Shown here: in pieces, positions 16,540-34,852 of the stretch | How the letters are laid out: each line of letters starts with the position of its first letter | Numbering within the stretch: the first letter of the stretch is position 1 | From: an uncultured Eubacteriales bacterium | GTDB lineage: Bacteria > Bacillota > Clostridia > Peptostreptococcales > Anaerovoracaceae | Assembly (NCBI GenBank): GCA_900318155.1 | Contig: ONJN01000089.1 | Span: 1 to 34,852 of the forward strand | Direction: 5' to 3' | Length of the DNA: 34,852 nt | Notes under the pieces: generated by a model | The model's input: the letters and a program-made list of their open reading frames with translations, nothing else | Told to the model about the DNA's origin: nothing | Database searches by the model: none | Program-made: the position numbers and the translations under genes

Positions 16540-17037
16540 CTATTTTGCGCCGCGTTTTTTAAACAAAACGTTTTTATATTTCCTGAGTATCTTTCCGAAC
16601 GTCACACCAAGCACTCCGCAGGAAATGATTTCTCCGATACCCACCGACAGCATAAGCAACGGAATCGGCAGTTTGATACCGTACGCGTATTTCAGGAGAA
16701 AAGGTACCACCAGCGCATTCGCCACAATCGGCGGAATTGCTGCCACAATCAGGCTCCTGCCTCTGAGACAGAAAGTCCCGACTGCGCCCGCCAGCGTAGC
16801 CAGGCTTCCGAAAATAATGTCGGGAAGAATCGCTCCGCCCAACGTATTACCTATAACGCAGCCCAAAAAAAGTCCCGGTACGGCTGCCGGCGTAAAGACC
16901 GGCAAAATCGTCAGCATTTCTGCGACACGCACCTGTACCTCGCTAAAGCTGAATGCTGCCAGTAGAACGGTTAGTACGACATAAAGAGCAGCAATCAATG
17001 CTGCTTCCGTCAGAAACTGTACTCTTGATTTTCTCAT
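16540..17037 (-). CDS. queT: QueT family queuosine-precursor transporter (ECF S component)
   Basis: 165 aa, five to six hydrophobic segments. The N-terminus LTEAALIAALYVVLTVLL is followed by FSEVQVRVAEMLTILPVFTP and GLFLGCVIGNTLGG, both typical of QueT. As the substrate-binding S component of an energy-coupling-factor transporter it would import preQ1 or a related deazaguanine for queuosine in tRNA anticodons. The C-terminus is Lys-rich (KNVLFKKRGAK). Start ATG 17037. The preQ1-I-like element directly upstream overlaps its ribosome binding site, which independently supports the function. No ECF energising genes are nearby, so they must be shared from elsewhere. Confidence 0.9.
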   Translation of the reverse strand: MRKSRVQFLTEAALIAALYVVLTVLLAAFSFSEVQVRVAEMLTILPVFTPAAVPGLFLGCVIGNTLGGAILPDIIFGSLATLAGAVGTFCLRGRSLIVAAIPPIVANALVVPFLLKYAYGIKLPIPLLMLSVGIGEIISCGVLGVTFGKILRKYKNVLFKKRGAK

Positions 17038-30345: not shown

Positions 30346-31287
30346 ATGTTAACAGTTTTAATAAAAGTATTTACGATTTTTTGTATTCTGGGCATCGGAC
30401 TCATTGCCAACAAAACGGGCATACTGCCGACAAAATCAGCCCCTTACCTGACAAATCTTCTCCTGATGATCACAACACCCTGCCTGATTCTCAGCACAAT
30501 GGGCAGCGCGGAACTCAGCGCCAGGACACTCCGCCTTACAATCGAAGTTCTGGTCGGCTGCAGTCTTTGTTTCGCGGCGGCGTGCGCTGCATCCTATTTC
30601 GTGATGAGATTACTGAAATACCATCCTCCGGAAGACCGCGGCGTTCTTATGGTCATTATGGCTTCGATCAACTGCGGCTTTATGGGGTTTCCGGTCTCCA
30701 AGGCCGTATTTGGGGACATGGTCTTCTTTCTTTTTATCGTACAGAACATAGTTTTCAATGTATATATTTACTCCATCGCGTACATTCAGCTGAATTACGG
30801 AACCGGAGAAAAGCATGACAAAAAAAGCCTTCTGCGCGCCTTTCTCAATATCCCGATCTTTGCGACCGTCGTAGGCTGTGTCATCCTGTTTGCGCAGATC
30901 CGGCTGCCGGGTCCGGTACTCGATTTGTTCTCAACGATCGGCGACGCCACGATTCCTCTTTCCATGATCATCGTCGGTGTGCAGCTCGGAGAAAGCCGTC
31001 CGGGAAAAATCTTAAAAAACAAAAAACTGGTCATCGCCTCATTGGCAAATGTCACGATCATGCCGTTTCTGGCTTTCCTGATCGCCTCGATCCTGCCGTT
31101 TGACAATCTGACAAAACTGACCATGGTATTTTCAGAAGCATTCCCATGCGCTGTGACGACTTCAGCGATCACGCTCCAAAGCCGTAAAAACGATCAGCTG
31201 GCGGCAGAAGGTATCACGCTGACTACGATATTTTCACTTGTCACGCTGCCAATCGTCGCTTCCCTGCTGATGTATCTGTATATGTGA
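30346..31287 (+). CDS. AEC family permease (auxin efflux carrier-type)
   Basis: 313 aa, about ten hydrophobic segments in two halves separated by a cytoplasmic loop (about residues 145-165). The N-half contains LLLMITTPCLILSTM and GFMGFPVSK, typical of the family. Members move organic acids or amino acids; substrate unknown. ATG 30346 with AAAGGA upstream. A small hairpin (AAACGCG ... CGCGTTT, 30310-30330) lies just before the ribosome binding site. Terminator at 31332-31355. A paralogue of the same length is at 32579. Confidence 0.9.
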   Translation: MLTVLIKVFTIFCILGIGLIANKTGILPTKSAPYLTNLLLMITTPCLILSTMGSAELSARTLRLTIEVLVGCSLCFAAACAASYFVMRLLKYHPPEDRGVLMVIMASINCGFMGFPVSKAVFGDMVFFLFIVQNIVFNVYIYSIAYIQLNYGTGEKHDKKSLLRAFLNIPIFATVVGCVILFAQIRLPGPVLDLFSTIGDATIPLSMIIVGVQLGESRPGKILKNKKLVIASLANVTIMPFLAFLIASILPFDNLTKLTMVFSEAFPCAVTTSAITLQSRKNDQLAAEGITLTTIFSLVTLPIVASLLMYLYM

Positions 31288-31422: not shown

Positions 31423-32256
31423 TCACTCTTCTTTGGTGATGATCTCTACCAGCTCTTTAATCTCAGGACTGTCGTAATCTTCTACAGTCCCTTTGTCGCA
31501 GGCCTCCGCCAGTGCCGGATCAATTGGAAGCTTTGTAACATTGGCGATATGGAGATCCGCGGCAAGGTCATCCACTGTGCTTTCCCCGAAGATGCTGTGC
31601 GTATTCCCACAATCCGGACAGGTAAAATATGACATATTCTCAACAATACCAAGAATTGGAATCGCCATCATATCCGCCATATTCACCGCCTTTTCTACAA
31701 TCATCTCAACAAGCGACTGCGGAGATGTTACAACAACAATCCCGGCAATCGGAAGCTGCTGATACACCGTCAGCGGAACGTCGCCTGTTCCGGGCGGCAT
31801 ATCCACAAACATCACATCGGTTTCACCCCATACGACGTCGCGCCAAAACTGCTCGATCAGGCCGCCGAGAATCGGACCGCGCCAGAGTACCGGCTGCCGC
31901 TCATCTTCCAGAAGCAGATTGGTCGACATAATCTTAATGCCGCTCTTTGAACGAATCGGTGTCAGCATCTGGTCAGCCGTTGCGCCCGGCCTCTCGCTGA
32001 GACCGAATATCTTAGGGATCGAAGATCCGGTAATATCCGCGTCAAGAACGGCTACATTCTTACCGAGCTTCTTAGCTTCAGCCGCAAGCATCGCTGTAAC
32101 AGATGATTTGCCTACACCGCCTTTCCCGCTTACAACACCGATCACCTTGTGAACGTTTGAAAACATATTCATCGGTGTCTTCTGAATCCCCTGATCCTCT
32201 GTTCTTTCACCGCAGTCAGCACCGCATGTACTGCAGTCATGTGTACATTCACTCAT
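31423..32256 (-). CDS. mrp: Mrp/NBP35 family P-loop iron-sulfur carrier
   Basis: 277 aa. Deviant Walker A GKGGVGKSS at residues 44-52, Walker B-like VFVDMPPGTGD, and the C-terminal CPDCG that in the family binds a bridging cluster between subunits. The N-terminus carries four cysteines (C4, C8, C11, C15), spacing C-x3-C-x2-C-x3-C. It is likely a scaffold or carrier of [4Fe-4S] clusters with ATP-dependent transfer. The start ATG 32256 has GAGAGGAG upstream. The control region at 32351-32393 has a palindrome over the likely -10. Confidence 0.93.
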   Translation of the reverse strand: MSECTHDCSTCGADCGERTEDQGIQKTPMNMFSNVHKVIGVVSGKGGVGKSSVTAMLAAEAKKLGKNVAVLDADITGSSIPKIFGLSERPGATADQMLTPIRSKSGIKIMSTNLLLEDERQPVLWRGPILGGLIEQFWRDVVWGETDVMFVDMPPGTGDVPLTVYQQLPIAGIVVVTSPQSLVEMIVEKAVNMADMMAIPILGIVENMSYFTCPDCGNTHSIFGESTVDDLAADLHIANVTKLPIDPALAEACDKGTVEDYDSPEIKELVEIITKEE

Positions 32257-32578: not shown

Positions 32579-33520
32579 TCAGAAGATCCCCATTGTCCTG
32601 AACAGAAACAGCCAGAAAAACAAGGTAAAAACCGATAAAGCTGAGGAAAAAATCACAATATTTCCCGCCAGTTCGCCGTCCGCGTCCATCGCTTCCGACA
32701 TCGTAAAAGATGACAGCGCAGCAGGCGCCGCGAATACAATGAGCAGAATAACAAACTCATACCCGCGAAAACCGGTCAGCGCTGAAATCGTCAGTCCGAT
32801 GCACGGTGTCAGTAGAAGCCGTATGAACACACCGGCAAACAACTGTCTCCCACTGTCCGAAACACTTTCAAACCGGAAAGAAGCGCCGAGGATGACCAGC
32901 GCGATCGGCGTACAGGCTTCCCCCATGCTTCTGACCGGCTGTTCAATAACAAACGGCAGTTTGATATGAAGCGCAGAGACAATAATCCCGGCAGCGGCAC
33001 CCAGAATGATCGGATTACGCGCCAGACCTTTCAGGATCCTGACCGGATCGACTTTGCTCCCCCGGAAGACTTCCAGAATAATGACGGCAAGAATATTATA
33101 AATTGGAACAATCACAGCCAGAATGACCGTCGCCACGCCCACTTCTTTTTTTCCGTAAAGATTCGTGACGACCGGCAGGCCCATGATAATCAGATTTCCT
33201 CTGTATGCGGCCTGAACGAGCACACCCCGCCTGCGGTTATCCTTCTCCAGTTTCATAACGATCGGAATTGAAACTGAAAAGATTGCCAGCACCATCACAA
33301 CGGCAAAAAAAAGCAGTCGTTTATGAATGCTCCCGCCGAGCTCCGTCGAATAAATATTATTAAACATAAGCGGAGGGAAAAAAACATTATAGATAAACTG
33401 GTTGACTTTACGAACCTCACCCGGAAGCAGCAATTTCCCCTTTCTGACGCCCATTCCGACAGCGATCAGCAGAAACATCGGCAAAATCGCCCTGATGCAA
33501 ATATAAAAATTATTAAACAA
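32579..33520 (-). CDS. AEC family permease, second paralogue
   Basis: 313 aa, about ten hydrophobic segments; same family as the gene at 30346 but clearly diverged. YNVFFPPLMFNNIY and GNLIIMGLPVV in the N-half, and GEACTPIALVILGASF and APAALSSFTMSEAMDAD in the C-half are typical. Substrate unknown. The TTG start at 33520 follows AAAGGAG with 8-nt spacing. Its own promoter is at 33550-33577. Confidence 0.9.
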   Translation of the reverse strand: MFNNFYICIRAILPMFLLIAVGMGVRKGKLLLPGEVRKVNQFIYNVFFPPLMFNNIYSTELGGSIHKRLLFFAVVMVLAIFSVSIPIVMKLEKDNRRRGVLVQAAYRGNLIIMGLPVVTNLYGKKEVGVATVILAVIVPIYNILAVIILEVFRGSKVDPVRILKGLARNPIILGAAAGIIVSALHIKLPFVIEQPVRSMGEACTPIALVILGASFRFESVSDSGRQLFAGVFIRLLLTPCIGLTISALTGFRGYEFVILLIVFAAPAALSSFTMSEAMDADGELAGNIVIFSSALSVFTLFFWLFLFRTMGIF

Positions 33521-33641: not shown

Positions 33642-33678
33642 TTAATGTATTGACATTAATACAATCCTGATGTATGAT
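33642..33678 (+). promoter_or_regulatory. Near-consensus promoter with palindromic operator
   Basis: TTGACA (33650-33655), 17-bp spacer, TATGAT (33673-33678). A perfect inverted repeat TTAATGT-ATTG-ACATTAA (33642-33659) covers the whole -35, a typical repressor site (MarR-like spacing, but the regulator is unknown). Transcription should start near 33685. Confidence 0.8.
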
Positions 33679-33711
33679 AACTATATCAAATAAAGAAAGG
33701 AGCTGGTACCA

Positions 33712-33780
33712 ATGGTAATCAAAGCAAAAGGACCGGGAGACATATCCGGGCGTGGTCTCAGTTCCGGGAGTTTCATATAG
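33712..33780 (+). CDS. 22-codon small ORF
   Basis: Begins MVIKAKGPGDISGRG and ends with GSFI and tandem stops TAG TAA. The ribosome binding site GAAAGGAG is optimally placed, about 8 nt before the ATG, and this is the first start codon of the transcript. The peptide is Gly/Ser-rich, not hydrophobic, and unlike known toxins or leader peptides; no run of one amino acid points to attenuation. It overlaps the GAGAC/GTCTC hairpin. Real translation is plausible, function unknown. Confidence 0.5.
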   Translation: MVIKAKGPGDISGRGLSSGSFI

Positions 33781-33885
33781 TAAAAGTCAGAGACTCAAAC
33801 AGTATTGTACTGATCAGGACGCGGACACCGAACCTGACGTAAATCTCTGACGGTTTACTCAAGAGGATTCCGGAAGGACGTGATC

Positions 33886-33996
33886 ATGCCCGAGGCGGCC
33901 GTTATCACACAATACTGCGGCATCTTAAAGGCGCGCACATATCTTTATCTGAAACAGGAATGTGACACGCCGAAAGACAGACCGACGTTTACATAG
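33886..33996 (+). CDS. 36-codon small ORF
   Basis: Begins MPEAAVITQYCGILKARTYL and ends DRPTFT. GGAAGG precedes the ATG by 8 nt, but the ATG lies inside the GTGAT/ATCAC hairpin, so translation may depend on RNA folding. Two Cys residues, no membrane segment. It could be chance. Confidence 0.35.
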   Translation: MPEAAVITQYCGILKARTYLYLKQECDTPKDRPTFT

Positions 33997-34075
33997 ATTA
34001 AATTCAATATTTATATAGATCGCTTAAATATGTTTTTCGGCTCCGAATTAAATATTGATTGATTTGTAAATTAAA

Positions 34076-34110
34076 CCGGCTGCCTGTTTTCAGCAGCCGG
34101 CTTTTTATTT
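34076..34110 (+). terminator. Terminator of the structured unit
   Basis: CCGGCTG, bulged C, CTG-TTTT-CAG, CAGCCGG (10 bp), followed by CTTTTTATTT. Also convergent with the 34160 gene. Confidence 0.9.
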
Positions 34111-34159: not shown

Positions 34160-34639
34160 TTATTCTGTTTCCATCCGTTTTTTCATGCTGCGGCAGCACT
34201 CCGCCTCCTCTCTGAAGCGGTTATCACCGCTCTGATTAAACAAATCGTCAAAGATCTTCTCTGCTTCTTCAATCATTTCAATATCACCGTCTGAAACATA
34301 TACTTCACTCCCGGCGATTCGGCGCAGCACAAAAGCGAGACATTCCCTGAGCTTACTCGAGTCCCCGTGATCCGCCATCGAACTCCGGATATCTTTCTCC
34401 AGATTTCTGTATGACTGGACCGCCTTTGTCTGTATCTGCCAGATTTTATGCGTGACTTCTGTGGTCCGCTCTTCGCAGGAATTTCTGAATGTACAGTATC
34501 CGCATATATCTCTTCCGTATTCCTGCCCGCAGTATTCTATCTTCAGAAGTTTACTGAGCATACTCAGTCCACTGTCTTCCAGCTTTCTGATGCGTTTGAA
34601 CCGCGACTCAAATGAAAACTCTCTCATGTTTTCTGTCAT
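34160..34639 (-). CDS. Cys-cluster hypothetical protein
   Basis: 159 aa, soluble, mainly helical and charged. Four cysteines at C37, C46, C49 and C55 (C-x8-C-x2-C-x5-C) followed by long helices with Glu/Arg and a second Cys pair near the end (ECCRSMKK). The spacing is close to the C-x6-C-x2-C-x5-C iron-sulfur loop of endonuclease III-type proteins, but no HhH motif is present; zinc is equally possible. ATG 34639 has GGGGGCG upstream; a second ATG four codons on is an alternative. Promoter at 34666-34695. Family not recognised. Confidence 0.75.
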   Translation of the reverse strand: MTENMREFSFESRFKRIRKLEDSGLSMLSKLLKIEYCGQEYGRDICGYCTFRNSCEERTTEVTHKIWQIQTKAVQSYRNLEKDIRSSMADHGDSSKLRECLAFVLRRIAGSEVYVSDGDIEMIEEAEKIFDDLFNQSGDNRFREEAECCRSMKKRMETE

Positions 34640-34745: not shown

Positions 34746-34782
34746 CAATGATTCCACAAATTAGCATAACAGACGCCGGATA

Positions 34783-34852
34783 TCCCCCGCCTCTACGTTT
34801 TACGAAGGCGGCGGGTTCTGTCTTCGAACGTCGGTGGCGGGTATCAATCCCC
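34783..34852 (-). other. Hairpin-rich window edge, possible mobile-element end
   Basis: Minus strand: CCGCC, a 15-nt segment containing CGT-AAA-ACG, then GGCGGGGG, just upstream of the terminator. A short frame ending PATDVRRQNPPPS and a stop runs in from the edge. Subterminal hairpins after a gene end are seen in IS200/IS605-type elements, but no transposase sequence is visible here. Confidence 0.3.

What the first reader, a model, noticed from the sequence alone, without database searches (positions are those of the whole stretch)
33642..34110. Compact, highly structured plus-strand transcription unit of unknown class
Seen: near-consensus promoter (TTGACA-N17-TATGAT), strong terminator, no long ORF, and at least eight complementary segments including an 8-bp and a 9-bp long-range pair. 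The density of pairing in about 425 nt is far above the surrounding intergenic DNA. Known large RNAs (tmRNA, RNase P, SRP, 6S, T-box) are not recognised. Inference: a new regulatory RNA or a structured small-peptide mRNA.
Basis: partly seen in the sequence, partly recalled or inferred. Interest (0 to 1): 0.85.

Follow-up and report, generated by a model that had tools for sequence, protein, structure and literature searches.

The report
Structured RNA with embedded GPGD micropeptide
A small stand-alone bacterial gene appears to make an RNA of about 425 bases that folds into a conserved shape and also carries a tiny conserved protein message inside the folded part; no catalogued RNA family matched it, and what it does is not yet known.

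Summary
In detail: window 33685-34110 (+) is a compact transcription unit with a near-consensus promoter, an intrinsic terminator and strong structure (z -5.4; lowest of 70 tiles). No Rfam family matches it or ten homologue loci. It is a conserved gene: 27 genomes in four genera of one family carry homologues, including 13 of 17 in its own genus. A named member places it in Anaerovoracaceae, not Lachnospiraceae. All 22 homologues examined have a Shine-Dalgarno sequence and a short ORF (20-30 codons) with a GPGD-type core. In those codons third positions depart from the majority in 29 of 88 cells against 4 of 176 at positions 1+2 (p=5e-12), so the peptide is under coding selection. The second half of the ORF is one strand of a long helix, P1, that covaries (cognate -38.1 against -23.7 kcal/mol; 0 of 200,000 permutations). 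6S, tmRNA and raiA/ModT occur elsewhere in the genus. Best reading: a new class of structured RNA with a translated micro-ORF, working like dual-function RNAs, in which translation and folding exclude each other. RNA class and coding selection are well supported; function and mechanism are inferred.

The parts
33650..33678 (+). Promoter, TTGACA (33650-33655), 17 nt, TATGAT (33673-33678); start of transcription inferred near 33685
   Evidence: 11 of 12 matches
33685..34110 (+). Predicted transcript of the structured RNA gene
   Evidence: conserved in homologues
33696..33702 (+). Shine-Dalgarno sequence AAAGGAG
   Evidence: an AAAGGAG-like sequence 5-11 nt before the start codon in 22 of 22 homologues examined
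33712..33780 (+). Short ORF, MVIKAKGPGDISGRGLSSGSFI, with stop TAG
33730..33741 (+). Conserved GPGD codons (GGA CCG GGA GAC)
   Evidence: variation concentrated at third positions
33733..33745 (+). Helix P0, 5' strand (inside the ORF)
34028..34040 (+). Helix P0, 3' strand
33747..33774 (+). Long helix P1, 5' strand (second half of the ORF); 33747-33757, 33762-33769 and 33771-33774 paired
33863..33892 (+). Long helix P1, 3' strand, ending in GCCCG
33779..33793 (+). Inner helices incl. P2, 5' strand
33844..33859 (+). Inner helices incl. P2, 3' strand
33800..33812 (+). Hairpin H1 (CAGUA/UACUG)
33814..33837 (+). Hairpin H2
33901..33909 (+). Conserved GUUAUC-type motif (GUUAUCACA)
   Evidence: 15 of 22 homologues, pattern chosen after looking
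33987..34020 (+). Hairpin P4 with two AYAUAGAU repeats
34076..34106 (+). Intrinsic terminator (8-bp stem, U run)

Best explanation
A stand-alone gene for a structured RNA of about 425 nt that also encodes a micropeptide (20-30 aa, GPGD-type core). Shown by comparison: the ORF is under coding selection, and its second half is a strand of helix P1, which covaries across four genera. In the own genus most of the GPGD codons also form part of the 5' strand of a long-range helix, P0. It follows, by inference, that a ribosome on the ORF opens P0 and P1, and that the closed fold hides the ORF, so translation and folding exclude each other. The most likely use, also inferred, is a dual-function RNA like RNAIII or VcdRP: the peptide and the folded RNA each act, and translation sets the balance, the RNA part acting in trans on targets not identified here.
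For: Homologues in 27 genomes of four genera. Coding: GPGD codons deviate at 29 of 88 third positions against 4 of 176 first and second positions, Fisher p=5e-12; a start codon (21 ATG, 1 TTG as called by the script) and Shine-Dalgarno in 22 of 22; start-to-core lengths of 5, 6, 8 or 11 codons (the script looks only in the GPGD frame, and found an open in-frame start in all 22). P1: alignment-free cognate test, -38.1 against -23.7 kcal/mol, 0 of 200,000 permutations, 14 of 22 cognate pairs rank first; earlier test on 10 own-genus sequences 0 of 100,000. P2/H1/H2 on 15 sequences: covariation score 0.296 against 0.179 shuffled, 0 of 500; slides at most 0.125. P0: 89 of 50,000 permutations. Local gene order (mrp, AEC-type transporter, 4Fe-4S-like protein) partly shared within and across genera, no single neighbour common to all. 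No Rfam match.
Against: No expression, ribosome or probing data. RNAalifold on the MAFFT alignment of the 5' half predicted no pair. In one search one of five measures (further pair types) was reached by 18 of 500 shuffles, and the structure was read off one row. The fixed-window P2 test was not significant (7,392 of 100,000). On 270-nt segments of 22 homologues the median z is only -2.2 and G001, G349 and G015 are near zero. P0 was tested in the own genus only (11 sequences); in G002, G009 and G011 it is weak or misplaced, and in G010 interrupted. The alternative pairing UAUCGUAA/UUACGAUA, seen by eye in several homologues, is not present in the window. No target RNA was sought. Four of 17 genus genomes gave no accepted hit (G005, G012, G014, G016; weak R2 matches were not read).
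Confidence: 0.6

Rival explanations
1. A micropeptide gene only: the peptide is the sole product and the structure is a stabilising or expression-tuning part of its mRNA.
For: Strong coding signature and Shine-Dalgarno.
Against: In the window about 330 nt follow the stop codon up to the terminator, and helices and motifs in that part are kept across genera, more than a peptide mRNA would seem to need.
Confidence: 0.2
2. A pure structured non-coding RNA; the ORF is incidental and the GGACCAGGAGAC conservation is helix P0 alone.
For: P0 pairs most of the GPGD codons in the own genus, with compensation in G003.
Against: Third-position bias p=5e-12, and Shine-Dalgarno plus in-frame start in 22 of 22, among them three other genera in which P0 was not tested.
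Confidence: 0.06
3. A cis-acting attenuator or riboswitch whose regulated gene lies downstream.
For: Leader-peptide-like ORF followed by folding RNA and a terminator.
Against: In the window the next sizeable ORF (34160-34639) is on the other strand; neighbours differ among homologues, and no co-directional downstream gene is shared by all.
Confidence: 0.05
4. A diverged copy of a known large RNA (tmRNA, 6S, raiA/ModT).
For: Length and complexity are similar; two of 17 genus genomes, the own one included, lacked an above-cut-off tmRNA.
Against: 6S above cut-off in 17 of 17, tmRNA in 15 of 17, raiA in 16 of 17, all at other places; at this locus only 11 weak Rfam matches up to E 10 (best 0.097), mostly over the terminator and none to these families.
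Confidence: 0.02

Closest known systems
RNAIII of Staphylococcus aureus (recalled; nothing fetched or compared)
   Same: Stand-alone, several hundred nt, many helices, long-range 5'-3' pairing, a peptide of about 26 aa encoded in the 5' part.
   Different: No Rfam match here; the peptide looks soluble and carries GPGD, not an amphipathic haemolysin; here the ORF itself forms strands of covarying helices; no target known.
VcdRP of Vibrio cholerae (PMC8672173, abstract and outline seen)
   Same: An sRNA with a base-pairing part and a 29-aa protein.
   Different: No sequence relation was examined; its two functions are experimentally shown, here neither is.
raiA motif / ModT RNA (PMC11706538, start of abstract seen in a search listing)
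   Same: Conserved stand-alone structured RNA of Bacillota.
   Different: A separate raiA copy exists in 16 of 17 genus genomes; this RNA does not match RF03072.
Leader peptides of attenuators such as the erm leaders (recalled)
   Same: Short ORF with a conserved core near codons 7-10, overlapping RNA structure.
   Different: No shared regulated downstream gene; stalling not tested.

Membership tests
Dual-function RNA (sRNA with coding ORF) | Own promoter and terminator | tested here: met
   by sequence only
Dual-function RNA (sRNA with coding ORF) | ORF under coding selection | tested here: met
Dual-function RNA (sRNA with coding ORF) | Conserved RNA structure besides the ORF | tested here: met
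   RNAalifold on the unaided alignment found none
Dual-function RNA (sRNA with coding ORF) | Peptide is made and both peptide and RNA have a function | not testable with these tools
   needs ribosome profiling, mass spectrometry, genetics
tmRNA | Match to RF00023 at this locus | tested here: not met
   tmRNA above cut-off elsewhere in 15 of 17 genus genomes
6S RNA | Match to RF00013 at this locus | tested here: not met
   6S elsewhere in 17 of 17
raiA / ModT | Match to RF03072 at this locus | tested here: not met
   raiA elsewhere in 16 of 17
Cis-acting attenuator or riboswitch | Co-directional regulated gene downstream, shared by homologues | tested here: not met
Type I toxin-antitoxin | Hydrophobic, membrane-spanning toxin peptide | tested here: inconclusive
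   the 22 peptides look polar and charged by inspection; no transmembrane predictor was run

The most novel reading that the evidence does not exclude
A ribosome-gated RNA: the GPGD codons are a programmed slow spot, so translation status (for example proline or glycine supply, or elongation-factor state) decides whether P0/P1 close or an alternative pairing (UAUCGUAA/UUACGAUA, seen by eye in several homologues, not in the window) takes the 3' strand, turning a trans-acting RNA on or off without any downstream gene.
Probability: 0.15. Interest if true: 0.85.

Novelty: new variant of a known kind. Interest (0 to 1): 0.62.

Why it matters
It would add a structured RNA class that matches no Rfam 15 family, in a poorly studied family of anaerobes, with one cultured named member in which it can be tested. 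The same bases serve as codons of a conserved micropeptide and as strands of conserved helices, a compact natural case for studying how translation and RNA folding control each other. It also shows how an intergenic RNA that looks non-coding can hide a coding ORF.

Tried and rejected
Plasmid and E. coli collections were not searched. The phage collection had no match. The exact-pattern scan of viral contigs gave one hit, L087, judged by eye to lie in a coding region. R3 hits that I read and rejected: G446 and G529 outside the family, G125 and G108 inside it, all inside longer open frames or without the ORF. In the class search 29 of 341 genomes had a hit at E up to 0.001; two are members (G000, G335), six of the other 27 were read and none is a member: five without the GPGD ORF, and L192, a hydrophobic short ORF after a similar Shine-Dalgarno. 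Other weak hits were not read and are not counted. RNAalifold on the unaided alignment found nothing. The idea that P0 alone explains the GPGD conservation was dropped. Peptide families: Pfam had none for one peptide typed, NCBIfam none for the 11 of alignment A1. 'PGDISG' is in no held paper; a search for at least two of Anaerovoracaceae and four RNA/protein terms matched 21,572 papers and listed ten, none of which holds the name, so this says little. Supplements, such as a candidate list of PMC8040213 (seen as a listing only), could not be read, so an unnamed entry there cannot be excluded.

Full report
Check of the observation. The promoter TTGACA-N17-TATGAT matches 11 of 12 positions, although that scan finds 6 promoter-like sites where 3.5 are expected. 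A terminator hairpin with an 8-bp stem lies at 34076-34100 with a U run at 34102-34106; the terminator scan did not list it, its loop being 9 nt where the scan allows at most 8. The 426 nt fold with z -5.4 and 0 of 100 shuffles as stable. Against 68 other 426-nt tiles of the window on both strands it has the lowest z (-5.7; the next are -4.9 and -4.8, tiles starting at 17001 and 16001; its own complement -3.7). The Rfam gathering search of the window found only two tRNAs, and at E up to 10 only 11 weak matches to this stretch, mostly around the terminator. Ten homologue loci gave no Rfam match at their RNA; the matches there are tRNAs and their complement.

Where it lives.

Homologues. DNA search, a degenerate pattern, a peptide profile and three models (R1, R2, R3), searched over 349 family genomes, 393 order genomes (R3) and 341 class genomes (R3), give 27 genomes in four genera, unnamed but for the one member: own genus 13 of 17 (G000-G004, G006-G011, G013, G015), g43 four (G058, G118-G120), g108 four (G335-G338) and g111 six (G348, G349, G355, G356, G358, G359). 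At least one g108 genome (G339) and seven g111 genomes (G347, G350-G354, G357) were searched without an accepted hit. I accepted a weak hit only after reading it and finding Shine-Dalgarno, start codon and GPGD in frame; G120 was accepted on its strong score (R3 E 6.8e-23) and not read. Hits outside the family that I read were false; weak unread hits are not counted. Model E-values are rough, and the large searches used stricter filters, so wider spread is not excluded. Many of the genomes are incomplete.

The short ORF. In 22 non-redundant homologues (dropped before the count as near copies: G007, G118, G119, G120, G335) an AAAGGAG-like sequence precedes a start codon (21 ATG, 1 TTG), and an ORF of 20-30 codons follows. 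For G009 the script chose an upstream ATG only 5 nt from the Shine-Dalgarno; an in-frame TTG further on is the other candidate. The core GPGD (SPGD in three, GSGD in one) is kept while its codons vary: 29 of 88 third-position cells depart from the majority, 4 of 176 first- and second-position cells do (Fisher p=5e-12; sequences are related, so the p value is a guide). This is the mark of selection on a peptide. Pfam had no family for the one peptide tried and NCBIfam none for the eleven of alignment A1.

The structure. P1: the 40 nt that begin 3 nt after the GPGD codons pair with a partner 105-200 nt on from the start of those codons. Without any alignment, cognate pairs average -38.1 kcal/mol and non-cognate -23.7; no permutation of 200,000 reaches the observed sum, and 14 of 22 cognate pairs rank first. 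The window's own pair ranks 3 of 43, G349 7 and G009 11. A first test on 10 own-genus sequences with GGGC/GCCC left out gave 0 of 100,000. Inside P1 lie P2 and hairpins H1 and H2: on 15 sequences the named structure has a covariation score of 0.296 against 0.179 in shuffles (0 of 500) and at most 0.125 when slid, while the count of further pair types is reached by 18 of 500 shuffles; the structure was taken from one row (G008), which favours it, and the unaided RNAalifold run found no pair. The fixed-window test of P2 was not significant. P0, CCGGGAGACAUAU with AUAUGUUUUUCGG in the window, closes the domain in the own genus (89 of 50,000 permutations over 11 sequences), with compensation seen in G003; it is interrupted in G010 and weak or misplaced in G002, G009 and G011. 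On 270-nt segments the 22 homologues fold with median z -2.2; three are near zero. A GUUAUC-type motif (15 of 22, shuffled mean 2.2, maximum 8) and AUAUAGAU-type repeats (12 of 22, shuffled mean 3.5, maximum 12) follow (patterns chosen after looking).

Neighbourhood. Within 6 kb the gene has an mrp gene in 12 of 22 loci, an AEC-type transporter in 12 of 22 and a 4Fe-4S-like protein (named by eye) in 8 of 22, often divergent, in more than one genus (window members named by Pfam), which speaks for vertical descent. No neighbour is common to all and no co-directional downstream gene is shared, so a cis-regulator is unlikely. One search used 22 loci with G007 and without G358, so it is not the same set.

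Not a known large RNA. In the genus, 6S is found above cut-off in 17 of 17 genomes, tmRNA in 15 of 17 (not in G000 and G008) and raiA in 16 of 17 (not in G008), all at other places.

How it probably works. Shown: conserved RNA gene, coding selection, covarying P1 that includes ORF bases. Follows: a ribosome reading codons about 8-22 must open P0 and P1, and a closed fold covers the ORF's core. Inferred: the molecule works like dual-function RNAs. [quoted passage not shown] RNAIII is the closest likeness in size and layout (recalled). It is not filed as a member of any of these by sequence.

Verdict. A real structured RNA class without an Rfam match, with an embedded, selected micro-ORF; function unproven.

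Noticed in passing
window 30346-31287 (+) and 32579-33520 (-): Two AEC-type permease genes flank the mrp gene (31423-32256, -); the second matches Pfam Mem_trans, and the two fall in one cluster.
   Followed up: partly
window 34160-34639 (-): 159-aa Cys-bearing ORF next to the RNA, no Pfam match above cut-off; of the 12 own-genus loci compared, only G010 has a relative at the same place (cluster 6).
   Followed up: partly
L036 and L037 (G004, G009): In these two genomes the RNA lies just upstream of a cluster of tRNA genes; the G009 copy is clearly shortened.
   Followed up: no
window 34772-34852 (+): G+C-rich stretch with repeated CCGCC/GGCGG words and pairing potential at the contig end, seen by eye.
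   Followed up: no
G000 and G008 whole genomes: No tmRNA above the Rfam cut-off in these two genomes although 15 of 17 in the genus have one; incomplete assembly is the likely reason.
   Followed up: no
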